From: an uncultured archaeon
GTDB taxonomy: Archaea > Thermoproteota > Nitrososphaeria > Nitrososphaerales > CALBXV01
DNA length: 9,103 nt
Reading direction: 5' to 3'
NCBI GenBank assembly: GCA_937890045.1
Contig: CALBXV010000058.1
Location: 1 to 9,103, forward strand
How positions within the stretch are numbered: the stretch's first letter is position 1; every line of letters begins with the position of its first letter. Below, piece after piece: positions 1-9,103 of this stretch. A program made the translations under genes and the position numbers. The notes under the pieces are model-generated. The model made no database searches. It was given only the letters and a program-made list of their open reading frames with translations, and was not told the origin of the DNA.

Positions 1-402
1 ATGAAACAGCGAGAAAAACAAACTGATTGGTTAGCTGATTTGATAGAAGAACATATTAAAGGATTTGATATAATAAATGAAGAAATTTTCCATAAGAAAA
101 TTTTAATACTTGGTAAATCGTTTAAACCAGAAACTAACATTACAACAGGAAGTCCGTCTATTTTATTAAAAAATATTTTAGAAGAAAGAGGACATGAAGT
201 TGATATGTGGGATCCATATGTTGATGATAGTGAGAATGAGTCTCAACAAGAACCAATGATTTATTTTATTGGAACTAAACATCCTGATTTTACTTCTTAT
301 GAATATAATCAAGGTTCTATTATAATTGATCCTTGGAGATATATTCCTAAACAAGATAATTGTGAAGTAATTCATATTGGAATAGGAGATGGATATGAGT
401 GA
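1..402 (+). CDS. Nucleotide-sugar dehydrogenase, C-terminal domain (UDP-glucose/GDP-mannose dehydrogenase family); probably 5'-partial
   Basis: The 133 residues match only the C-terminal domain of UDP-glucose/GDP-mannose dehydrogenases, which oxidise an NDP-hexose to the uronic acid with two NAD. Visible hallmarks are a beta strand leading into LGKSFKPETN (residues 37-46), the counterpart of the family's G-x-x-FKpxT motif with the conserved Lys at 42, then GSP at 50-52, a Rossmann-type helix, WDPYV (70-74) and IIDPWRY (108-114). Residues 1-20 look like the helix that normally follows the central dimerisation domain. The N-terminal NAD domain and the catalytic Cys are absent. The ATG at base 1 is therefore most likely an internal Met, with the gene starting upstream of the window, although a stand-alone C-terminal domain protein cannot be excluded. 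The stop overlaps the next gene by 8 bases, so the two are probably translated together. The family call is fairly sure; sugar specificity is unknown. Confidence 0.75.
   Translation: MKQREKQTDWLADLIEEHIKGFDIINEEIFHKKILILGKSFKPETNITTGSPSILLKNILEERGHEVDMWDPYVDDSENESQQEPMIYFIGTKHPDFTSYEYNQGSIIIDPWRYIPKQDNCEVIHIGIGDGYE
384..388 (+). promoter_or_regulatory. Ribosome binding site that fixes the start of SGNH-like paralogue 1
   Basis: AGGAG ends 6 bases before the ATG at 395. The alternative ATG at 389 immediately abuts it, leaving no spacer, so the later start is chosen. Confidence 0.75.
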
Positions 403-1372
403 TTTTCTTTCATATAAAGAATGGATAGAAAAACGGGGATTTGAAGATAATGCTTGGGGGGCTACCGAATATATGCAACATAAAATTCGTGAAGAAATTG
501 ATTTCTTTGATTTTAAGAAGAAAAAAAGAAAGAAAATTTTGTTTACAAGTGGATGTAGTTTTTGTATTAATTGGCCTGAAATTTTAGCTAAAAAATTAAA
601 TCGTCAATTGATGAATATGGGACATGGTGCATCAGGAAATGAAGTTATTCACAATCATACTATTTTTGCAGTTAAAAAACTATTGGATAGTGGTATAAAT
701 CCTAAAGATATTTTACCTATTGTTAGTTGGGGAGAAGTTAATCGTAAGGATTTTGTTATAAATAAACAAGATACAGTAGAGTATGATTATATTGTAGACG
801 AAGAACCTTCAGGAACAAATCCTAGCAATTGTTTTTTTCAGGGAACAAGTTATGGGTATTTAGGAGTACCTCAAGGTAATTATTCTACTTGGATAAAGAG
901 TGGTGGACTGATGGGACATGGTGGTTATTGGAAAAACTACTATAAATATTATTATACTGAAGAACAACATTTTTTAAATACTTTACATATGATTTATTAT
1001 ACACAATTATTTTTTGAAAAGTATGGTATAGATTATAAGATGGTAGTTTGGCAAAATATATTCCATGACAGGAATAATTACTTTGATAATAATTCGATAG
1101 AATATTTTATTAGTGAGGGTGGTTCAAGAGGACTTACCTTTAAATCAAAAGATGTAGAATTATTATGTGATTATTATCCATCAACGAAACATATTTGGGA
1201 TATGATTGATTTTTCTAAGTTTATTTTTTATGAGGATGATGAGGTTAGTATGGGAGGTATTGCCGAACATAATATTCAAAATGATATTCTTTTACATGGA
1301 AACCATCCTATTTGGGAAGGAAATGTAAAGTATGTAGATGATGTATTATTACCAGTATTAGGAAATAAATAG
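395..1372 (+). CDS. SGNH/GDSL-hydrolase-like protein, paralogue 1 of 5 (long N-terminal extension)
   Basis: A 325-residue protein. The start at 395 is chosen because AGGAG (384-388) lies 6 bases upstream; the in-frame ATG at 389 would touch that site. A charged N-terminal extension of about 47 residues, unique among the five paralogues, precedes the core. The core begins with strand KKILFTSGCSF (GCSF at 53-56), the position of the GDS nucleophile block in SGNH hydrolases. It is followed by SGNE (80-83), SWGEVNR (111-117), a helix-strand unit running from 191 to QNIF (220-223), WDMID (268-272), a GG..E segment and NHP (303-305), which would be the C-terminal catalytic His block. No signal peptide or membrane segment is seen, so it probably acts in the cytoplasm. 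An esterase or acyltransferase role on glycans is inference only. It overlaps the dehydrogenase fragment by 8 bases and is followed 1 base later by paralogue 2. Confidence 0.8.
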   Translation: MSDFLSYKEWIEKRGFEDNAWGATEYMQHKIREEIDFFDFKKKKRKKILFTSGCSFCINWPEILAKKLNRQLMNMGHGASGNEVIHNHTIFAVKKLLDSGINPKDILPIVSWGEVNRKDFVINKQDTVEYDYIVDEEPSGTNPSNCFFQGTSYGYLGVPQGNYSTWIKSGGLMGHGGYWKNYYKYYYTEEQHFLNTLHMIYYTQLFFEKYGIDYKMVVWQNIFHDRNNYFDNNSIEYFISEGGSRGLTFKSKDVELLCDYYPSTKHIWDMIDFSKFIFYEDDEVSMGGIAEHNIQNDILLHGNHPIWEGNVKYVDDVLLPVLGNK

Positions 1373-1373
1373 T

Positions 1374-2123
1374 ATGAAACTTGTAGCAGTTGGATGTAGT
1401 TTTTTGGATATGTGTAAGAAAAAGACATTGGAAGATGGTACAATTCAAGGAACATATTCAGATTTTCCTAAAGGAACAGGAAATTGGGGATATCATTTAT
1501 CAAAATTATTAAAATTAGATTATTTAGATTATGGAAGATCAGGATATTCAAATGAATATATGTGGAGAAAGTCAATTGAAATTGTGTTATCAGAGAAAAA
1601 TATTGAGGATTTATTTTTTGTTGTAGGGTGGACAGATTCTTATCGTTTTGAATTTTATGCTGAACTAGAAGGTAAATTTCAGACATATTATGCATCACAT
1701 TTTTTGGAGCAAAGAAAAACGAAACATTTAGTAAAATTTTATTCTTTTTATCAATATTGGATACGAACTTTAAATTATCAGATAACTTTGAGGAATTTTT
1801 TTAAAGAATATAATATAAAATATGTATTTTTTGATGCACTAGCAGGTCCAGAAACAGCATCTATTGAATATATTGAATCGGCATTTAACAACAAAAAATT
1901 TGAAAAATTATATCTATTGGGTAAAGAAAATATTTATACTATTACTAGATTGATAAAAGAGAAAAATAAAAGTAATTTTATGGAAGAAGTACAACAACTT
2001 TTCTTAGAAAATGACAAAAAATATTTTGGAAAAGATGGATATAAAGGCCATCCGAGTCAGTTAGGGCATGAAAAATGGTCAGATGTAATTTTTAAATATA
2101 TAGAGGAAAATAAAATATTATGA
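1374..2123 (+). CDS. SGNH/GDSL-hydrolase-like protein, paralogue 2 of 5 (divergent, short)
   Basis: A 249-residue protein and the most divergent of the five. The start has AGGA (1360-1363) 10 bases upstream and lies 1 base after the preceding TAG. It opens directly with the first core strand, KLVAVGCSF (GCSF 7-10), then shows SNE (59-61), VVGWTDSYR (83-91), a helix-strand pair near 125-155 ending in FFDAL, and a C-terminal DGYKGHPS with Asp221 and His226. That last block resembles the Asp/His pair of classical SGNH hydrolases, so this member may keep a catalytic triad Ser9-Asp221-His226. It lacks the WDMIDW and GG..EW segments that the other four share, so it probably represents a separate subfamily rather than a recent copy. 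Its stop overlaps the next start in ATGA. A hydrolase fold is likely; the substrate is unknown. Confidence 0.78.
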   Translation: MKLVAVGCSFLDMCKKKTLEDGTIQGTYSDFPKGTGNWGYHLSKLLKLDYLDYGRSGYSNEYMWRKSIEIVLSEKNIEDLFFVVGWTDSYRFEFYAELEGKFQTYYASHFLEQRKTKHLVKFYSFYQYWIRTLNYQITLRNFFKEYNIKYVFFDALAGPETASIEYIESAFNNKKFEKLYLLGKENIYTITRLIKEKNKSNFMEEVQQLFLENDKKYFGKDGYKGHPSQLGHEKWSDVIFKYIEENKIL

Positions 2124-2896
2124 AACATATAGTAACAAGTGGGTGTAGTTATTCTGATGCTAATATGGGAGCTTGGCCCCGTTATATAAAAGATTATTTT
2201 CCAAATATGAGAGTATATAAACTTGGTGCGTGTGCAAGAGGAAATGATTATATTAGTAGAACAATAATATCATCAGTACAAAAATTATTAAATGATGGCG
2301 TAGAATCAAATGATATTTTTGTTTTATCTTGTTGGTCTGGAATGCAAAGACATGATATATTGATTAATAGTGAAAGTGTAAATATGCATTATAAATTAAA
2401 AAGTAATCGTAGAGATACTTATTACAGTGATGATGATCCAATGGGTGAATGGACTAATTTTAGTGATGAGTGGTGGAAAGTAATACCTGACGAACAAAGT
2501 TATATTATTTCAATGGAACATATTTTACGTACACAGTGGTTTTTAGAAAAACATGATATAGGTTATTGTTTTTTTACATTTGTAAATACATTGGCTTACC
2601 ATAATTATTCTGAATTTTGGAAAGATAATCATTATGATAAAGATAAAACAAAGATAATCTATGAGGTTTATCCTACTTTAAAGTATTTATGGGATATGAT
2701 AGATTGGGATAAGTGGTGGTTTTCGGATGAAAATTATGGTGGATTAGGAAATTGGATACAGGAAAATGTACCAGGTGGATATTCAGAGGATGAAAGAGAT
2801 GGTATACTTGGACATAATCATCCAATAAAAGAAGCACATAAAAAGTTTACAGAAAAGGTTGTGTGTTTGTTCATAGAAGAATGGAATGGAGTTTAA
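2120..2896 (+). CDS. SGNH/GDSL-hydrolase-like protein, paralogue 3 of 5
   Basis: A 258-residue protein that starts in the ATGA overlap with the previous stop, with GAGGA (2103-2107) 12 bases upstream. Core motifs in order are GCSY (8-11), WP at 19-20, ARGND (39-43; Asp where most paralogues have Glu), SCWSGMQR (70-77), a helix-strand unit around 130-160, WDMIDW followed by WW (191-200), a GG..NW segment and GHNHP (231-235) near the C-terminus. These are the same blocks, in the same order, as in paralogues 1, 4 and 5. Trp is frequent, and no signal peptide or transmembrane stretch is visible. The nucleophile block reads GCS rather than GDS, and an Asp exactly three residues before the His is missing (Asp227 is seven away), so catalysis is not assured. 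The stop is 1 base from the mini-gene at 2898. Confidence 0.8.
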   Translation: MKHIVTSGCSYSDANMGAWPRYIKDYFPNMRVYKLGACARGNDYISRTIISSVQKLLNDGVESNDIFVLSCWSGMQRHDILINSESVNMHYKLKSNRRDTYYSDDDPMGEWTNFSDEWWKVIPDEQSYIISMEHILRTQWFLEKHDIGYCFFTFVNTLAYHNYSEFWKDNHYDKDKTKIIYEVYPTLKYLWDMIDWDKWWFSDENYGGLGNWIQENVPGGYSEDERDGILGHNHPIKEAHKKFTEKVVCLFIEEWNGV

Positions 2897-2897
2897 T

Positions 2898-3002
2898 ATG
2901 ATTAAATTTTTTAGATATTTATGGTATAAAGTAAAATCGTGGCATATGTATAGAAAGAAAATAAAAAGAATAAGAAAAAGAGATCCATTTATATATAAGT
3001 AA
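2898..3002 (+). CDS. Small very basic 34-residue protein, unrecognised function
   Basis: A 34-codon ORF fills the only apparent gap in the SGNH-like array. It starts with ATG at 2898, 6 bases after a clear GGAG (2888-2891), and ends with TAA one base before the next start at 3004. It therefore fits the spacing rule of the cluster exactly, which argues that it is real. The peptide begins MIKFFRYLWYK, continues with a dense Lys/Arg stretch (roughly residues 19-28) and ends RDPFIYK. There is an aromatic, hydrophobic N-terminal half and a cationic helix, but no recognisable domain. Short ORFs ending in a DPFIY-like sequence occur, to my recollection, in T4-like marine phages; that is memory, not a search result. 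It might bind nucleic acid, membrane or a partner protein. Its function is unknown. Confidence 0.65.
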   Translation: MIKFFRYLWYKVKSWHMYRKKIKRIRKRDPFIYK

Positions 3003-3003
3003 A

Positions 3004-3873
3004 ATGAATAAAGTAGTTAATACAATGGGTTGTAGTTTTAGTTGTAATTCTTATCCCCAAATATTGCAGGAAAAATATAATATTAATGTTGATAGTATGG
3101 CTAGACATTCGTGTGGGAATGAGCATATAATGAGATCAGTAATTTGGGCATCATATAGGCATTTTAAAAAATATAAGACTTATGAAAATTTATATTTTAT
3201 AGTTCAATGGTCAGGATTACATAGAGTAGAAAAACTTGTTACAAAAAAAGAAACTATTGAATATGATGATTATGTAAAAAATGCAGAAGTAACTCCAATA
3301 GTTAATTGGGACGATTGGGATAATGGTATTAAAGAATCTGGATGGTTGTTTGGAACAGGCTGGTTTCATTTACCTATTTGGAAAAAATGGTTTAGATTTT
3401 TCGAAACAGACGAGTTTGCATTTATTAGAACTATGGAGTCTATTTTAACACTTCAACATTTTTTTAAGAATAATAAAATAACACATAAAATGATATTAAT
3501 GGAAAATATATTTAATGATTATTCAGTTGATTATTATAAGGGGGCAACTATATCTGAACCAGATGGGGTAGATTCTGGGGTAGTGTGGAATTATCTTAGT
3601 GAAAATAATTTATTAAGTAATAAAATATCAAAGAATACGCCATTATTAAAAGACATATATCCAAATTCAACTCATTTATGGGATATAATAGATTGGAATA
3701 ATTGGTGGTTATATGAAAATGATTATATTGAAAATGGCGGAATTTCTGAATGGTGTTTGTTTGAAGGAGAAAACCCGTGGTCAACTGAAGATGATGTTCA
3801 ACATCCAAGTATGAAAAATAGAGAATTATTTACTGAAAAAATTCTTTTAGGTGATATTGATAAATGGAAATAA
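3004..3873 (+). CDS. SGNH/GDSL-hydrolase-like protein, paralogue 4 of 5
   Basis: A 289-residue protein starting 1 base after the mini-gene stop, with no strong Shine-Dalgarno of its own, so translation probably depends on coupling. Motifs in order are MGCSF (8-12), CGNE (37-40), VQWSGLHR (67-74), a helix-strand unit ending in MENIF around 145-170, KNTPLLKDIYPNS leading to WDIIDW (226-231), WW, GGISEW, and a C-terminal DVQHPS (Asp264, His267). DxxH matches the spacing of the SGNH catalytic Asp/His block, so a triad Ser11-Asp264-His267 is plausible. It is closest to the next gene: their 3' halves share a 67-base stretch with a single mismatch. No secretion signal is seen. The gene overlaps paralogue 5 by 10 bases. 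The fold is fairly sure; the reaction (deacylation or acyl transfer) is inference. Confidence 0.82.
   Translation: MNKVVNTMGCSFSCNSYPQILQEKYNINVDSMARHSCGNEHIMRSVIWASYRHFKKYKTYENLYFIVQWSGLHRVEKLVTKKETIEYDDYVKNAEVTPIVNWDDWDNGIKESGWLFGTGWFHLPIWKKWFRFFETDEFAFIRTMESILTLQHFFKNNKITHKMILMENIFNDYSVDYYKGATISEPDGVDSGVVWNYLSENNLLSNKISKNTPLLKDIYPNSTHLWDIIDWNNWWLYENDYIENGGISEWCLFEGENPWSTEDDVQHPSMKNRELFTEKILLGDIDKWK
3644..3710 (+). repeat. 67-bp near-perfect direct repeat, left copy (in SGNH-like paralogue 4)
   Basis: Bases 3644-3710 match 4591-4657 with one mismatch (A at 3687, G at 4634), including an uninterrupted 43-base run. It encodes the LLKDIYPNS through WD(I/M)IDW and WW segment. Confidence 0.88.
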
Positions 3874-4820
3874 AAACTGTATTAAATAAACATATTGTAA
3901 CTGCTGGATGCAGTTTTACAAATTGTGGAAAATCATGGCCATATCATATTAATCAAAAAAAATATGGTTGGGTACATAATATAGGAAGTCCTGGAGCAGG
4001 ACAAGCTTTTATATCTCGTAGTGTTATTTATGAAGTTGAAGATATATTGAACAGAGGTACATTACCTGAAGATATTGAAGTGTTTGTGATGTGGTCAGGA
4101 ATAGATAGATATGAGGTTTTATCTACTCAAAAAGAAACACCAATGCATAAACTTTATATAGAAGGTAATGATATGAATTGGTTAGAAAATTTTATTTTTA
4201 TAGATAATGGTGGTAGAAGAATTCCATTTAAAGAATCGTGTTGGTTAAAAAGTTCTACTCGTGGTATGCAATGGGAAAATAAGCCTGTTGTAAGGTTGTT
4301 TGATATGTATTTTAAATTTTTCCATACAGAGGAAGAATCTTTTGTTAGAAGTCTTGAAAATATATTGAGATTACAATGGTATCTTGATAGTAAAAATATT
4401 GAATATAAGTTTATGAGTTGGCAAAACATTTTTAATAAATATAGTTTTACTGTACCTAAAGGATATCCATCAACAGGTGGAGTTGCTGAAGGACATAATA
4501 TTTGGTGTATGGGCTGGAGTCATAATGATTGGCATGATAATATAGTTTGGCCAAAAGAAATAGATTGTAAAATTTCTAAAAATACACCGCTATTAAAAGA
4601 CATATATCCAAATTCAACTCATTTATGGGATATGATAGATTGGAATAATTGGTGGTTTTATGAAGATGAACAAGTAGAGTATGGTGGACTGGCAGAGTGG
4701 GTAATTTTGGGAGAACGACACGCTTGGGGAAATGGAAAAGAAGATCCGGGCCATCCTTCTGAATATTCACAGAGCGAATTTACAAAAAAAGTTATAATAC
4801 CAATTTTGGGTGAACGATGA
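3864..4820 (+). CDS. SGNH/GDSL-hydrolase-like protein, paralogue 5 of 5 (Gly-Gln in place of Gly-Asn)
   Basis: A 318-residue protein. The start at 3864 has AGGTGA (3849-3854) 9 bases upstream and lies inside the preceding gene. Motifs in order are TAGCSF (13-18), SWP (24-26), GAGQAF (44-49), FVMWSGIDR (74-82), a helix-strand unit ending SWQNIF around 150-190, KNTPLLKDIYPNS then WDMIDW (255-260), WWFYED, YGGLAEW, and DPGHPS with Asp294 and His297 in DxxH spacing. Where the paralogues have G-N-(E/D), this one reads G-Q-A, a change at a position usually important in the second SGNH block. The C-terminal Asp/His pair and the Ser17 nucleophile remain. Relative to paralogue 4 it carries extra residues between the QNIF and KNTP segments. 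Its stop forms TGATG with the start of the glycosyltransferase pair. A catalytic role is possible but unproven. Confidence 0.82.
   Translation: MEIKTVLNKHIVTAGCSFTNCGKSWPYHINQKKYGWVHNIGSPGAGQAFISRSVIYEVEDILNRGTLPEDIEVFVMWSGIDRYEVLSTQKETPMHKLYIEGNDMNWLENFIFIDNGGRRIPFKESCWLKSSTRGMQWENKPVVRLFDMYFKFFHTEEESFVRSLENILRLQWYLDSKNIEYKFMSWQNIFNKYSFTVPKGYPSTGGVAEGHNIWCMGWSHNDWHDNIVWPKEIDCKISKNTPLLKDIYPNSTHLWDMIDWNNWWFYEDEQVEYGGLAEWVILGERHAWGNGKEDPGHPSEYSQSEFTKKVIIPILGER
4591..4657 (+). repeat. 67-bp near-perfect direct repeat, right copy (in SGNH-like paralogue 5)
   Basis: This is the partner of 3644-3710 at offset 947. Synonymous positions are conserved too, unlike most of the rest of the two genes. 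Confidence 0.88.
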
Positions 4821-6193
4821 TGAAGATATTATGTTTACTACCTGAGATACGAAGTGAGGAGTATATGCCATTTACTATAAGTGATATACACGACACATCA
4901 AATTCAAATAGGGCTTGTATAGAAGAACATAAATATTATAACGAAAAAGGTTTAGAAAGTTATTTTTCTTTTCGAGTAGAGTATTTTGATGAGTTCGTAG
5001 ATAAAAATAGTGTAGAAATTTTACACGATTTCCCTAATGAAAATGAAAAGTATATTATTTTATGGAATTTATCAGATATAGTTAGTTTTAATCAAGAGAT
5101 TTTACAATATTGGGACGAATGGTATAATAAAAAAGATAAAGTTTTTTTAAGGATGATTGATGATTTAAGAAATAATAGATGTTCTATAATATTTCATTCT
5201 TTACATGATTCGGAATGTGATAATATGGATAGTGAGTCTCAGAGATTACGAGAATCAATAATAAATTGGTTTGAGACAAAAGATATTCCACTTAATAGAA
5301 TATCATATGTTGGAAATGGAGCATCAAGAAAAAAAGAATGGTGGAAAGATATAACATCTTTTAGAGTCCATTATCCGCCTTTAAATATGCATAGAATAGT
5401 AAAGGGATTAACACCTGATTATTATTTAGGTGGATTTGTAAATAGTTTATACCATCTTAGACAGAAACATTTTCTTACTTTTAATTCTGCTCCAAAGGCT
5501 GGAATAAGAAGTAAGTTGGTTAAATTTCTTGGTGATAATGATTATGTAAAAAAAGGTTATGTATCTTATAAACCTTATCATTCACATTCAACATCACTTG
5601 GTCTTAAAAAAAGGTATCTTGACAGTTCAGATGAAACTCATGGAGATCCGAGAGGAGATATTACCAGACATGATAATACCTTTATACAGAATTGCACTAA
5701 AGAATTAATTAGTAAATATAATAATAGAAGTTTATATGCACTAACGCTTTCATCACACTCTGGTTGGAGAAGTAATTCACCATTACATTTTAACTCATAT
5801 TTTAATATTGTTAGTACGAGTGGAGCAAATACTGGATTAGAAGAATCATATTCAGGAGTTGATCTGGATGAAAAGATTTGGAAACCGATTATTCATTTTC
5901 AACCCTTTATAATAGTAGGAAATTCAGGAATTCTTAAAAGAGTAAGAAAGTATGGATTTAAAACTTTTGAACCATTTATTGATGAAAGTTATGATGAAAA
6001 GGGACCTGACGATATGGATTTGGTATTAAAGGAAATTGATAAGTTATGTAGAATGAATAGAGTAGAAATAGATAAATGGTATTGGGAAATGAATGATATA
6101 TTATTATATAATTTTAACCATTTTTTTAAGTTTTGTAATAATCAAATGAAACTTGTAATGGATGAAGTAGAACGACATTGGAGTTTGACGTGA
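4820..6193 (+). CDS. Probable phage-type glycosyltransferase, copy 1 of a tandem pair
   Basis: A 457-residue protein. The ATG at 4820 is preferred over the in-frame ATG at 4817 because GGGTGA (4808-4813) then sits 6 bases upstream and the N-terminus MKILCLL aligns with that of copy 2. It starts with a strand and a (S/N)EY.PF segment. It then has an acidic alpha/beta region, NRISYVG near 159-165, RQKHFLTFN (214-222) followed by IRSKLVKFL, and a C-terminal IHFQPFIIVGNSG then GFKTFEPFIDESYD (379-392), followed by a helical tail. The pattern K-x-F-x-x-FN, then R, and later PFI..G....L....GFKTF...DESYD is one I associate with uncharacterised viral and bacterial exostosin- or GT10-like glycosyltransferases. 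Donor and acceptor are unknown. No membrane segment is seen. It overlaps copy 2 by 4 bases (GTGA). Copy 2 matches it along its full length, with short insertions and deletions. Confidence 0.75.
   Translation: MKILCLLPEIRSEEYMPFTISDIHDTSNSNRACIEEHKYYNEKGLESYFSFRVEYFDEFVDKNSVEILHDFPNENEKYIILWNLSDIVSFNQEILQYWDEWYNKKDKVFLRMIDDLRNNRCSIIFHSLHDSECDNMDSESQRLRESIINWFETKDIPLNRISYVGNGASRKKEWWKDITSFRVHYPPLNMHRIVKGLTPDYYLGGFVNSLYHLRQKHFLTFNSAPKAGIRSKLVKFLGDNDYVKKGYVSYKPYHSHSTSLGLKKRYLDSSDETHGDPRGDITRHDNTFIQNCTKELISKYNNRSLYALTLSSHSGWRSNSPLHFNSYFNIVSTSGANTGLEESYSGVDLDEKIWKPIIHFQPFIIVGNSGILKRVRKYGFKTFEPFIDESYDEKGPDDMDLVLKEIDKLCRMNRVEIDKWYWEMNDILLYNFNHFFKFCNNQMKLVMDEVERHWSLT
6127..6188 (+). repeat. 62-bp perfect direct repeat, left copy (3' end of glycosyltransferase copy 1)
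   Basis: Bases 6127-6188 are identical to 7488-7549 (offset 1361). The repeat encodes the last residues of each copy, including MKLVMDEVERHW, and the ribosome site for the following gene. It is longer and more exact than protein-level conservation requires. Confidence 0.9.
6180..6183 (+). promoter_or_regulatory. Ribosome binding site inside copy 1, for the GTG start of copy 2
   Basis: GGAG lies in the last codons of glycosyltransferase copy 1, 6 bases before GTG at 6190. The same site recurs at 7541-7544 inside the perfect 62-base repeat and there serves the gene at 7553. The coupling signal has therefore been copied with the gene. Confidence 0.75.
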
Positions 6194-7560
6194 GAATATT
6201 ATTTTTGTATACACGATACCGTACTAATGAATATAAACCATTTGCTCCGAATACGCTAGATAATCTAAACGGGCCATCAGGAAATATGGTTTGCGTAACA
6301 GAAGATAGATTTGCTGGGCAGCAAAGTATTGAATCATTGTTTTCATTTAATACAGAGTATTTTTATAAGTTTGTAGATGAAAATAATGTAGAATTTTTAG
6401 ATGATTTTCCTACCAAAGATGAAAAATATGTAATTTTGTATAATTTATCAGATATTATTTCATTTACTGATGAAATTAAAAGGTGGGATGAATGGTATAA
6501 TAAAAAAGATCAAGTTTTTTTAAAAATGATTGATGATTTAAGAAATAACAGATGTTCTGTAATATTTCGTTCTTATCATGATTCACTTGATGATACTAAT
6601 GAAATTTCGAGAGATTTTGTGTTAGAATGGTTGTTTAACAAAGATATTCCACTTAATAGAATATCATATTTAGGATGTGGAGTACCAAATAAAGCAAATT
6701 GGTGGAAGGGAATATCATCTTTGAGAGTACATACTATATGTTTACAGTTATATCGAATACTTAAAGGATTTACACTTAATTATTATTTAAGTGCATTTAC
6801 AAATAATCTTTACCACCTTAGACAGAAGCATTTTGTTACATTTAATCATCATTGGAAATCTGGAAATAGAAGTAAGTTGGTTAAATTTCTCAGTGATAAT
6901 GATTATGTCAAAAAAGGTTATGTATCTTATAAGGCTTCTGAATCAAGTTCTTCACCAAACGACCCACTTAAAAGGATATACCTTGATAGTTCAGAAGAAA
7001 CTCATAAGGAGTTGAGAGGAGATATTACCAGACATGATAATACAAATACACTTGGGAATATTAGTGTTTTTTTAAAAAAATATAACAATAGAAGTTTGAG
7101 TATGCAAGAGCTTTCATCTCATACAGGACTTAGATCTAATTCACCATTACATTTTAATTCATATTTTAGTATTATTGTTAATTTTATTGCAGGAAATCCT
7201 ATTGATAAAGGAATTGATTTAGACGAGAAGATGTTTAGATCAATAATTCATTTACAACCTTTTTTGATTATGGGAAGTACAGGAATACTTGCCAGATTGA
7301 GAAAGCATGGATTTAAAACTTTTGAACCATTCATTGATGAATCTTATGATAAAGAAGAAAATGTAGATAAAAGGATGGATATGATATTAAATGAGGTTGG
7401 TAGATTGTGTAGTATGGATAGAGTAGAAATAGATAAATGGTATTGGGAAATGAAAGTTATATTATTATATAATTTTAATCACTTTTCTAAGTTTTGTAAT
7501 AATCAAATGAAACTTGTAATGGATGAAGTAGAACGACATTGGAGTTTGATGCATGAGTGA
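6190..7560 (+). CDS. Probable phage-type glycosyltransferase, copy 2 of a tandem pair (GTG start)
   Basis: A 456-residue protein. The start is GTG at 6190: GGAG (6180-6183) lies 6 bases upstream, the overlap with the previous TGA is the usual 4 bases (GTGA), and the resulting N-terminus MRILFLY aligns with MKILCLL of copy 1. A TTG at 6178 is open in frame, but it would overlap the ribosome site and add residues that copy 1 lacks. Domain order copies copy 1: (T)NEYKPF, NRISYLG, RQKHFVTFN, NRSKLVKFL, IHLQPFLIMGSTG and GFKTFEPFIDESYD (374-387). Divergence is greatest in the N-terminal 60 residues and in the segment after the SYK motif, the latter with small indels, which would fit changed substrate specificity on a conserved nucleotide-sugar-binding C-terminal half. 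Its 3' end carries the ribosome site of the next gene and overlaps it by 8 bases. Function is inferred only from family resemblance. Confidence 0.75.
   Translation: MRILFLYTRYRTNEYKPFAPNTLDNLNGPSGNMVCVTEDRFAGQQSIESLFSFNTEYFYKFVDENNVEFLDDFPTKDEKYVILYNLSDIISFTDEIKRWDEWYNKKDQVFLKMIDDLRNNRCSVIFRSYHDSLDDTNEISRDFVLEWLFNKDIPLNRISYLGCGVPNKANWWKGISSLRVHTICLQLYRILKGFTLNYYLSAFTNNLYHLRQKHFVTFNHHWKSGNRSKLVKFLSDNDYVKKGYVSYKASESSSSPNDPLKRIYLDSSEETHKELRGDITRHDNTNTLGNISVFLKKYNNRSLSMQELSSHTGLRSNSPLHFNSYFSIIVNFIAGNPIDKGIDLDEKMFRSIIHLQPFLIMGSTGILARLRKHGFKTFEPFIDESYDKEENVDKRMDMILNEVGRLCSMDRVEIDKWYWEMKVILLYNFNHFSKFCNNQMKLVMDEVERHWSLMHE
7488..7549 (+). repeat. 62-bp perfect direct repeat, right copy (3' end of glycosyltransferase copy 2)
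   Basis: This is the exact match of 6127-6188. Further identical blocks at or near the same offset are 6057-6093 with 7418-7454 (37 bp) and 5650-5679 with 7014-7043 (30 bp), showing a patchwork of conserved and diverged segments. Confidence 0.9.
7541..7544 (+). promoter_or_regulatory. Ribosome binding site inside copy 2, for the gene at 7553
   Basis: GGAG is 8 bases before ATG at 7553. It is the duplicate of the site at 6180-6183, with the spacer altered from ...gacGTG to ...gatgcATG. Confidence 0.7.
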
Positions 7561-8497
7561 TATTATTTGTAGAAATGTGTCATCAGGTCAAAGAATGATG
7601 TATACCATAGTGAATTTTCAAAAAGAATTTAGCAGACTCACAGATAAAAAAAATAAATTAGATTATTTGAATAATTTGAATATTCATTGGCCACACACAA
7701 GCAATACTGATTCTTTGTTACCTCATTCTGATGAAAATGTTTTTTATGATTATTTTAATCCTAATATAGAAGAATTATCTAATTGTTTAGTAACACCATA
7801 TGAGCCATATGAACAAATAATGGATTTTTGGGAAGATATACAAAAACAAAAGTTTGATGAAATAGATTATGGTTGGGTTAGGTCACTATTTAATCCATCA
7901 GAAGGAGTGAAGCATTATTTAGATAGATTAATAAGTGAATCAAATATTGATTTTAAAAATAGTGTTATGTGTTATTTTAGAGGTTGGACAGAACATTCAG
8001 GTCCCCCAATTGCTGGTGGAAATCATCCGCACTCGTATGCCGAAGTTATTGATAGTATGGGATTAGATAATGCTGTTATAATGACTGATAATTATTTTTG
8101 GGGACACTGGTTCAAGGAATATTTTAAGAAAAAATATAAAATTTTAGATTTGTCACCTTTACTTATTAACGATGGTGAGTTCCGAGCTGTTACAGTGAAA
8201 AAGAATGCAGGGGATGTGTTGAGCTTAGCGCATGGCAATATATATGCAGATAAGTTTAATGCCGATATTAAAGATGGAATATATATATGGTATGCAAAAT
8301 TATTATTTGTGTCGATGTTTGAACATCATATTTTATCATCTGGATCACATACATCATCTCTGATATCTTTTTTCAAGAATTCAATCAGAAATACAGTTTT
8401 TATAGATTGGGAACTCAACCATAATTTTTATAATGTTGATGATAAAAATTTAAAATGTAAAATAAATCGTTATAATTTTTCAGAGGGTAATATATGA
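7553..8497 (+). CDS. Putative glycosyltransferase, fucosyltransferase-like (low-confidence family call)
   Basis: A 314-residue protein starting at ATG 7553, 8 bases after GGAG (7541-7544) in the preceding gene. It is not related by eye to the tandem pair upstream. A segment GQRMMYTIVNF (12-22) near the N-terminus could be a degenerate counterpart of the G-x-G-N/R loop of fucosyltransferases. CYFRGWTEH (140-148) resembles their H-x-R-x-x-D strand. YAEVID, then VIMTDNYFW (175-183) and a following helix resemble the usual strand with TDD. FEHHILSSGSHTSS (256-269) resembles the late CE.FI.S..SNSS donor-site loop. The order fits GT-B enzymes of the GT11/GT23 type, but each motif is imperfect (His where Asn is expected in the last), so the call is tentative. 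It ends in an ATGA overlap with the carbamoyltransferase, suggesting that the two products act in the same pathway. Confidence 0.45.
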   Translation: MSDIICRNVSSGQRMMYTIVNFQKEFSRLTDKKNKLDYLNNLNIHWPHTSNTDSLLPHSDENVFYDYFNPNIEELSNCLVTPYEPYEQIMDFWEDIQKQKFDEIDYGWVRSLFNPSEGVKHYLDRLISESNIDFKNSVMCYFRGWTEHSGPPIAGGNHPHSYAEVIDSMGLDNAVIMTDNYFWGHWFKEYFKKKYKILDLSPLLINDGEFRAVTVKKNAGDVLSLAHGNIYADKFNADIKDGIYIWYAKLLFVSMFEHHILSSGSHTSSLISFFKNSIRNTVFIDWELNHNFYNVDDKNLKCKINRYNFSEGNI

Positions 8498-9103
8498 AAA
8501 TATTAGGAATAAACGCGCTAAATCACGACGCTGCTATAACTATGATAGAAGATGGTGAGATTTTGTTTGCTGGTCATAGTGAAAGATATAGTGGAATCAA
8601 GAATGATTCAGATTTGAACTCGGCATTATTTGCCGATTGTTATAGACTTGGTGGTAAACCAGACAAGGTAGTATATTTTGAAAGACCATACTTAAAAAAG
8701 TTAAGACAATTAAGAGCAGGTCAATATGGAGAAGTATTTTCTCGTAAGAATTTACCATCTTATTATTTAAGAGATTTTGTTGGTAATTCAGAAATAGAGT
8801 ATGTCCAACATCACCAATCTCACGCCGCGGCAGGTTACTTTACGAGTCCATATGAAGAATCAGCTATTGTAGTTATAGATGCAATAGGTGAGTTTGAGAC
8901 GTGTAGTATTTGGTATGCATGGGGTTCACATTTTGAAAAACGATATAGTTTAAAGTATCCAAATTCACTTGGTCTTTGGTATAGTGCAATGACTCAACGA
9001 TTAGGATTAAAACCACAAGAGGATGAATACATTCTTATGGGAATGGCTGGTTGGGGAACACAAGACCACAAACTAAAGAATAGTATTCGTGAAGATTTCT
9101 TTA
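8494..9103 (+). CDS. Carbamoyltransferase of the NodU/CmcH/TobZ family, N-terminal part (3'-truncated by window end)
   Basis: Only the first 203 codons are in the window; family members usually run to about 500-600 residues. The start at 8494 shares ATGA with the previous stop and has AGAGGG (8482-8487) 6 bases upstream. These enzymes transfer a carbamoyl group from carbamoyl phosphate, via a carbamoyl-adenylate, to a hydroxyl of a sugar or antibiotic. Visible family features are the ASKHA-type first strand MKILGIN with NHDAA (10-14), an ER near 30, VQHHQSHAAAGYFTSP (104-119) containing the metal-binding His cluster, the strand AIVVIDAIGE (124-133), and GLWYSAMTQRLGL followed by MGMAGWG. The C-terminal domain lies outside the window. 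Next to glycosyltransferase genes, an O-carbamoylated sugar is the simplest product. A viral member of this family has been reported to act on 5-hydroxymethylcytosine in DNA, so a nucleic-acid target is an alternative. The family call is firm. Confidence 0.93.
   Translation, partial: MKILGINALNHDAAITMIEDGEILFAGHSERYSGIKNDSDLNSALFADCYRLGGKPDKVVYFERPYLKKLRQLRAGQYGEVFSRKNLPSYYLRDFVGNSEIEYVQHHQSHAAAGYFTSPYEESAIVVIDAIGEFETCSIWYAWGSHFEKRYSLKYPNSLGLWYSAMTQRLGLKPQEDEYILMGMAGWGTQDHKLKNSIREDFF

What the first reader, a model, noticed from the sequence alone, without database searches (positions are those of the whole stretch)
395..4820. Tandem array of five SGNH-like paralogues
Five adjacent genes encode proteins with the same block order: GCS(F/Y) near the N-terminus, G-N-(E/D) or a variant, W(S)G..R or a variant, a helix-strand unit often ending NIF, WD(M/I)ID(W/F) in four of the five, and a C-terminal HP block. 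They differ in length (249-325 residues), in loops and in terminal extensions. Such local amplification of one enzyme fold suggests either a set of activities on several positions of one glycan, or a diversifying family under selection by host surface variation.
Basis: partly seen in the sequence, partly recalled or inferred. Interest (0 to 1): 0.7.

Follow-up and report, generated by a model that had tools for sequence, protein, structure and literature searches.

The report
Phage glycan-island SGNH-fold enzyme array
An uncultivated tailed phage appears to carry five neighbouring genes for old, much-diverged relatives of esterase-type enzymes, set among sugar-building genes and most likely used to decorate a sugar coat, and beside them sits a tiny unnamed protein that in many other viral contigs is coupled to a carbamoyl-transferring enzyme.

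The parts
1..402 (+). C-terminal part of a nucleotide-sugar dehydrogenase (UDP-glucose/GDP-mannose type)
   Evidence: PF03720 35.2 bits over cut-off 30; 76-82% identical in L002, L003, L004
389..1372 (+). Gene 1, SGNH-fold family, 327 aa (325 from the ATG at 395); long charged N-terminal extension
   Evidence: own clade with P0002-P0006
1374..2123 (+). Gene 2, SGNH-fold family, 249 aa, most divergent of the five
2120..2896 (+). Gene 3, SGNH-fold family, 258 aa
   Evidence: clade with L003, L004, L006, L008 genes
2898..3002 (+). 34-aa microprotein ORF ending ...KRDPFIYK, filling the gap between genes 3 and 4
   Evidence: searches (frame; same motif beside SGNH-family genes in 11 further loci, duplicates dropped; pN 0.12 against pS 0.85 versus L006), against scrambled control
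3004..3873 (+). Gene 4, SGNH-fold family, 289 aa
   Evidence: orthologue 76% identical in L006
3644..3686 (+). 43-nt tract identical to 4591-4633 (gene-conversion signature)
   Evidence: longest identical run 43 nt, 0 of 10,000 codon-column shuffles reach it (max 30)
3864..4820 (+). Gene 5, SGNH-fold family, 318 aa; Ser17, Arg82, His297, Asp294 in a DxxH
4591..4633 (+). Partner of the 43-nt conversion tract
4817..6193 (+). Putative glycosyltransferase paralogue 1 (role inferred, no family match)
   Evidence: 59% identical to the next gene; no family
6178..7560 (+). Putative glycosyltransferase paralogue 2 (role inferred)
   Evidence: 62-nt identical tract 6127-6188 / 7488-7549
7553..8497 (+). 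Protein of unknown family, 314 aa
   Evidence: no match; one PHROG at E 0.09, not convincing
8494..9103 (+). NodU-type carbamoyltransferase, N-terminal part, runs off the window
   Evidence: PF02543 87.5 bits; PHROG 1601; 82-96% identical in L002-L004, L006

Best explanation
The five genes encode SGNH-fold, Ser-His enzymes working in the phage-infected cytoplasm as part of a phage-encoded glycan island. Each most likely transfers or removes one O-acyl group (acetyl is the simplest guess) on a different sugar of a glycan built by the island, alongside a sugar dehydrogenase, putative glycosyltransferases and an O-carbamoyltransferase. The product would be a decorated glycan on the virion or on the infected host's surface. 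Shown: fold (genes 2 and 5), conserved Ser/His/Arg, glycan neighbourhood, old orthologous lineages, purifying selection (genes 3-5), presence of close relatives in a tailed-phage record. Inferred: catalysis, acyl donor, acceptor, and use of the product. The likely reaction is Ser attack on an acyl donor, an acyl-enzyme, then transfer to a sugar hydroxyl (transferase) or to water (esterase). The oxyanion hole must be atypical because the block III Asn is missing.
For: Fold. Ser 136/137, His 136/137, Arg 136/137. Neighbours of the family: of 139 neighbour proteins scanned (139 of 183 non-redundant ones), 19 match Epimerase, 14 Radical_SAM, 6 UDPG_MGDP_dh_N, 3 DegT, 3 carbamoyltransferase; 30 ORFs from the first 54 kb of one such phage record show none of these but baseplate, tail-fibre and primase domains. 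A dehydrogenase, then SGNH genes, then the carbamoyltransferase, with other genes in between, in the window, L002, L003, L004 and L008. Purifying selection on genes 3-5. No room for a signal peptide in genes 2-5: the nucleophile Ser is residue 9 to 17, hence cytoplasmic (inference). Published precedent: OafA/OafB SGNH domains that O-acetylate surface glycans also lack GxND and have an atypical oxyanion hole (PMC7448272, passages read).
Against: No sequence-level match of the window genes to a characterised enzyme. Asp of DxxH in only 2 of 5 window genes and 87 of 137 family members. No acyl donor system (AT3/MBOAT) among the ten window proteins scanned. The SGNH sugar O-acetyltransferases that I recalled or read about here act outside the cytoplasm. 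No direct evidence for the glycan's structure or place.
Confidence: 0.5

Rival explanations
1. They are hydrolases, not transferases: they strip acyl or carbamoyl groups from host glycans or from nucleotide sugars so that the phage-built glycan can form or so that the receptor is altered.
For: The nearest folds are hydrolases: TesA, ChoE, acetyl xylan and rhamnogalacturonan acetyl esterases. No acyl donor partner is visible in the window.
Against: Genes 2-5 leave no room for a signal peptide, so they would not reach an external polysaccharide; several paralogues kept in a biosynthetic island fit decoration better.
Confidence: 0.25
2. The module acts on nucleotides or DNA bases (hypermodification) rather than on a surface glycan, together with the carbamoyltransferase.
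For: In 29 of the 80 microprotein loci clustered (80 of 120 held) the gene upstream of the microprotein belongs to one cluster that I read as primase-like from its sequence alone. Phage carbamoyltransferases acting on DNA bases are recalled, not looked up.
Against: Neighbours of the SGNH family include many sugar-nucleotide enzymes.
Confidence: 0.08
3. Glycan-binding or structural pseudo-enzymes without catalysis.
For: Atypical oxyanion hole; variable Asp.
Against: Ser and His, with Arg, are the most invariant residues of a family that otherwise varies widely.
Confidence: 0.1
4. One reading: a recent local amplification diversifying under selection from host surface variation.
For: Tandem order; conversion tract between genes 4 and 5.
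Against: Five separate supported clades with orthologues elsewhere; dN/dS 0.16-0.31 for genes 3-5. A few fast sites inside a conserved fold cannot be excluded by pairwise dN/dS.
Confidence: 0.05
5. Filler DNA for headful packaging, the possibility raised in print for cyanophage LPS clusters.
For: Sullivan et al. 2010 leave it open (PMC3037559, passages). A degraded fragment of a gene-5-like copy in L002.
Against: dN below dS in 11 of 11 pairs tested, 6 SGNH-family and 5 microprotein.
Confidence: 0.02

Closest known systems
E. coli TesA and GDSL/SGNH esterases (fold)
   Different: 8-16% identity in the rows shown; GCS for GDS in 110 of 137 members; no block III Asn; 249 and 318 residues against about 180 in TesA; near-invariant Arg
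PatB and OafA/OafB SGNH domains (surface-glycan O-acetyltransferases)
   Different: Those act outside the cytoplasm with membrane acyl carriers; here no room for a signal peptide in genes 2-5 and no such partner in the window. Whether the two Asn positions match in space was not tested
Pfam PF19547 DUF6071
   Same: The Pfam model that matches most members: 49 of 77 in A3 at E up to 0.01, next best families 1 member each; relatives exceed its cut-off in 6 of 6 phage records
   Different: Window genes score 17.6-25.1 bits, under the cut-off of 27, and gene 4 does not match; its description gives no function; 0 papers in the held library name it
LPS gene clusters of T4-like cyanophages (P-SSM2, S-SSM7)
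   Same: Large phage-borne glycan clusters; carbamoyltransferase, epimerase and (P-SSM2) dioxygenase genes seen (PMC3037559 passages)
   Different: No member of this SGNH family found by profile in the stretches examined: S-SSM7 40 kb and HTVC008M 31 kb, P-SSM2 14 kb. The rest of those genomes was searched only by tblastn

Membership tests
SGNH hydrolases (strict sense) | alpha/beta/alpha SGNH fold | tested here: met
SGNH hydrolases (strict sense) | Block I catalytic Ser (GDS) | tested here: met
   Ser in 136 of 137 (1 gap); the preceding residue is Cys in 110 and Asp in 25
SGNH hydrolases (strict sense) | Block II Gly | tested here: inconclusive
   Gly 93, Ser 19, Ala 17 of 137 at the aligned position; register rests on sequence alignment
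SGNH hydrolases (strict sense) | Block III GxND Asn | tested here: not met
   W/L-[ST]-x-x-x-R instead; among the eight commonest residues printed for positions 77-81, Asn appears only at 81 (13 of 137)
SGNH hydrolases (strict sense) | Block V DxxH | tested here: inconclusive
   His 136 of 137; Asp at the aligned -3 position in 87 of 137 with 28 gaps, in genes 4 and 5 of the window only
Pfam DUF6071 | Score over the curated cut-off (27 bits) | tested here: not met
   Genes 1, 2, 3, 5 at 17.9, 25.1, 24.1, 17.6 bits; gene 4 none
Extracytoplasmic SGNH O-acetyltransferases (PatB, OafB type) | Export signal or membrane acyl-carrier partner | tested here: not met
   Nucleophile at residue 9-17 in genes 2-5; no AT3/MBOAT domain among the ten window proteins. 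No signal-peptide program was run; the acyl carrier could lie outside the window
Extracytoplasmic SGNH O-acetyltransferases (PatB, OafB type) | O-acetyl transfer to a glycan | not testable with these tools
   needs an assay
Tailed-phage glycan island | Lies in phage genomes next to glycan genes | tested here: met
   Met for relatives: G003 carries gp25/gp6-like baseplate proteins and primase and an SGNH run between dehydrogenase and carbamoyltransferase. For the window itself no longer record was available, so its phage origin is inferred

The most novel reading that the evidence does not exclude
A three-part phage module not named in any library searched here: a roughly 35-residue basic, amphipathic microprotein with a C-terminal RDPFIYK motif, a NodU-type O-carbamoyltransferase translationally coupled to it, and one or more SGNH-fold Ser/Arg/His enzymes inserted between or beside them. 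The microprotein would be an adaptor that docks the carbamoyl- and acyl-transferring enzymes to each other or to the membrane-bound glycan precursor, so that a phage glycan is carbamoylated and acylated in one complex.
Probability: 0.3. Interest if true: 0.75.

Novelty: new variant of a known kind. Interest (0 to 1): 0.5.

Why it matters
Large glycan clusters in marine phages were described in 2010 with their role left open (PMC3037559, passages). This work gives them a recurrent, testable component: an old SGNH-fold family with its own Ser/Arg/His signature, kept as several orthologous lineages, with the pairs tested under purifying selection, which argues against filler DNA. It also ties the family to phage carbamoyltransferases and to a microprotein that Pfam and PHROGs do not name. 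If the enzymes are cytoplasmic O-acyltransferases, they would be a soluble counterpart of the membrane-coupled O-acetylation systems.

Tried and rejected
Searches that led nowhere: megablast of the window and tblastn of window genes 2 and 5 and of four other family members against 50,697 deposited phage records gave no match; the putative glycosyltransferase likewise. Yet one such record, Marine virus AG-345-D19, holds two members found by profile, so 'no tblastn match' does not mean absent from deposited records. PDB sequence searches found nothing below E 0.01 for the family; the weak dextranase match (0.013) was judged chance. T4 gp23 was not found in four phage records, with a control that rang nowhere, so nothing follows. 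Single-protein scans for genes 1 and 2 in viral contigs confirmed no relative. The genome scan gave two MAG contigs, one labelled Pacearchaeota (probably a phage contig, inference; it also carries the microprotein motif) and one Bdellovibrionia with a single copy in a setting without glycan genes that I recognised. RNA structure in the 107-nt gap: z 0.04, nothing. Promoter-like sites 72 against 66.9 expected.

Results against a simple microprotein-carbamoyltransferase story: of 101 carbamoyltransferase ORFs in 120 loci sampled by a carbamoyltransferase motif instead, 84 have 400 nt upstream and only 1 of these has the microprotein there, so it marks a subset. None of the seven stretches from deposited records has it (8 carbamoyltransferase ORFs). 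A tblastn of a 33-aa member against phages found nothing, which the low-complexity filter may explain. 45 of those 120 carbamoyltransferase loci hold SGNH-family ORFs and 15 of the 84 have one as immediate neighbour. I had no random-locus baseline left, only 0 of 50 ORFs in the first 60 kb of G003. Result against reading the whole 4/5 block as conversion: the block is the more conserved part in other pairs too, for example 65% against 51% DNA identity between the two L006 paralogues, so constraint accounts for part of the excess.

Rows dropped before counts: 17 loci (duplicates, the G003 pieces, the MAG L014) before the neighbour count, then 139 of 183 neighbours were scanned (the longest, the shortest and some end pieces left out). 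Family members outside 170-420 aa (homologue-search proteins: 230-420 aa) and those 85% identical to another were dropped before the residue counts (213 to 137).

Rejected: gene 2 as unrelated (rejected); recent diversifying amplification; filler DNA.
Full report
What is there. Five ORFs on the + strand at 389-1372, 1374-2123, 2120-2896, 3004-3873 and 3864-4820 encode proteins of 327, 249, 258, 289 and 318 aa. They sit in one tightly packed run of genes, most of which overlap by 4 to 16 bases: nucleotide-sugar dehydrogenase C-terminus (PF03720), the five genes, two putative glycosyltransferase paralogues (59% identical; no reliable family match), an unknown protein, and a NodU-type carbamoyltransferase (PF02543).

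One family. BLASTP links genes 1, 3, 4 and 5 (E 6e-14 to 3e-53) but hardly gene 2 (0.017). Leave-one-out profiles settle it: with the query and its close relatives removed, genes 1-5 score 192, 114, 195, 171 and 206 bits; 200 shuffles of each reach 2.7 to 8.3 bits at best and five other window proteins 4.4 at best. Of the libraries searched only Pfam's DUF6071 (PF19547) gives repeated matches, under its cut-off for the window genes, though relatives in phages exceed it in 6 of 6 records.

Active site. In 137 members (213 collected, non-redundant at 85%) aligned to gene 5, Ser17 is Ser in 136 (1 gap), Arg82 is Arg in 136 (1 gap), His297 is His in 136, Gly15 is Gly in 135, Cys16 is Cys in 110 and Asp in 25, the residue after the block II [GS] is Asn in 115, and Asp294 is Asp in 87 (28 gaps). 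The Asn of block III (GxND) is not there. That is the defining residue that fails, so I do not file the family as SGNH hydrolases in the strict sense, only as SGNH-fold relatives that probably work like them. The numbering of TesA's residues that I used as a guide is recalled. A published precedent for lost GxND with retained function is OafA/OafB, whose SGNH domains serve O-acetylation of surface sugars (PMC7448272, passages read); PMC9558356 and PMC10302187 were read as passages for context. The nucleophile lies at residue 9 to 17 in genes 2-5, leaving no room for a signal peptide, so I infer a cytoplasmic site.

Not a recent amplification. In a tree of the 137 members (IQ-TREE, quick mode, midpoint root for drawing) the five window genes need five changes and well-supported branches force five. 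Gene 1 groups with P0002/P0003, gene 2 with P0014, gene 3 with L006 and L003/L004/L008 genes, gene 4 with an L006 gene, gene 5 with P0031/P0035 and then another L006 gene. The L006 orthologues of genes 3, 4 and 5 are 59, 76 and 75% identical, while genes 1, 3, 4 and 5 are 21-37% identical to each other. dN/dS against L006 is about 0.31, 0.16 and 0.20 for genes 3, 4 and 5. The array is therefore a set of old lineages maintained together.

But there is local exchange. A 43-nt stretch is identical between genes 4 and 5 (3644-3686 and 4591-4633). No codon-column shuffle of 10,000 reaches it (longest 30), and a run of 22 same-amino-acid columns with identical codons is reached in 5 of 20,000 shuffles; a simpler test of synonymous identity inside against outside gives p 0.028. 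Around it the two paralogues are 86% identical in DNA but 51% elsewhere. Gene 4 and its L006 orthologue are 73% in that block and 77% elsewhere, gene 5 and its orthologue 81% and 79%. This points to gene conversion in the WDMIDW block, perhaps from gene 5 into gene 4 (inference). The block is the more conserved part in other pairs too (65% against 51% between the L006 paralogues), so constraint explains part of it. Record G002 (L002) holds a broken C-terminal fragment of a gene-5-like copy, another trace of turnover.

Where it lives. Six phage records carry 7, 5 (plus the fragment), 4, 3, 8 and 5 members (counted by hand from overlapping rows). In L006 five members again lie in a row before the carbamoyltransferase, but a different set. 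Record G003 (106 kb) has gp25- and gp6-like baseplate proteins and primase. Marine virus AG-345-D19, from an extracellular-particle sorting plate (PMC6122165, passages), has two members directly before a carbamoyltransferase. Of 139 neighbours scanned (of 183 non-redundant), 19 match Epimerase, 14 radical SAM, 6 sugar dehydrogenase, 3 DegT aminotransferase, 3 carbamoyltransferase models; 30 ORFs of the structural region of G003 match none of these. Phage glycan islands with carbamoyltransferases are known in T4-like cyanophages, where their use was left open between function and filler (PMC3037559, passages). The window's own phage origin is inferred from these relatives; no longer record of it was held.

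The 107-nt gap between genes 3 and 4 is an ORF of 34 aa, MIKFFRYLWYKVKSWHMYRKKIKRIRKRDPFIYK (2898-3002). Short ORFs with the same C-terminal motif lie beside SGNH-family genes in L002, L003, L004, L006, L008, L013, L017, L018, L023, L026 and L028, and away from them in L005, L040 and L041/L042. It is conserved by selection (pN 0.12, pS 0.85 against L006). In these 120 loci the motif ends an ORF of 32-66 aa in 119 (one is cut off by the end of the locus). The next gene is a carbamoyltransferase in 85 of 120, in 69 of these with a 4-nt overlap, an SGNH-family gene in 19 (in 11 of those the carbamoyltransferase follows), another gene in 11, none in 5; 27 have an SGNH-family gene adjacent on either side and 53 hold at least one (80 ORFs) (first counted on 80 of the 120). 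Pfam and PHROGs know none of seven members tested; 128 homologous proteins were found and none of the 120 listed has an informative name. The converse fails: of 84 carbamoyltransferases sampled by their own motif, 1 has it. In print I found no description with one search on carbamoyltransferase, phage, microprotein, cyanophage and small open reading frame (26 papers, 12 listed, listing only).

Verdict. It is an assembly of old lineages inside a known kind of phage glycan island, with an atypical active site, most likely used to acylate or de-acylate the glycan. The boldest reading that survives is a three-part module of microprotein, carbamoyltransferase and SGNH-fold enzymes.

Noticed in passing
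window 2898-3002: Conserved 34-aa microprotein ORF ending RDPFIYK; in 120 viral loci with the same ending the next gene is a NodU-type carbamoyltransferase in 85 and an SGNH-family gene in 19
   Followed up: yes
window 3644-3686 and 4591-4633: 43-nt identical tract between genes 4 and 5, a gene-conversion signature
   Followed up: yes
window 4817-7560: Two 59%-identical putative glycosyltransferases with a 62-nt identical tract near their 3' ends (6127-6188, 7488-7549); relatives recur across the related islands
   Followed up: partly
L002 8269-8454: Fragment matching the C-terminus of gene 5 (66% over 62 aa) right after an intact family member; the wider match has stops inside
   Followed up: partly
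L053 2115-3941 and 12655-14568: 608- and 637-aa proteins that match the SGNH-family profiles, perhaps fusions
   Followed up: no
L014 9983-10999: Single family member in a Bdellovibrionia MAG contig of 337 kb, with no glycan genes that I recognised nearby
   Followed up: no
L062-L141, gene upstream of the microprotein: 29 upstream neighbours form one cluster that looks primase-like by its N-terminal zinc-finger pattern (my reading of the sequence)
   Followed up: no
L001 7393-7992 and 8878-9408: Two halves of what looks like a transketolase/dehydrogenase-E1-like enzyme (my reading; 2 of 139 neighbours match PF00676, which does not say which) flank a family member in the island
   Followed up: no
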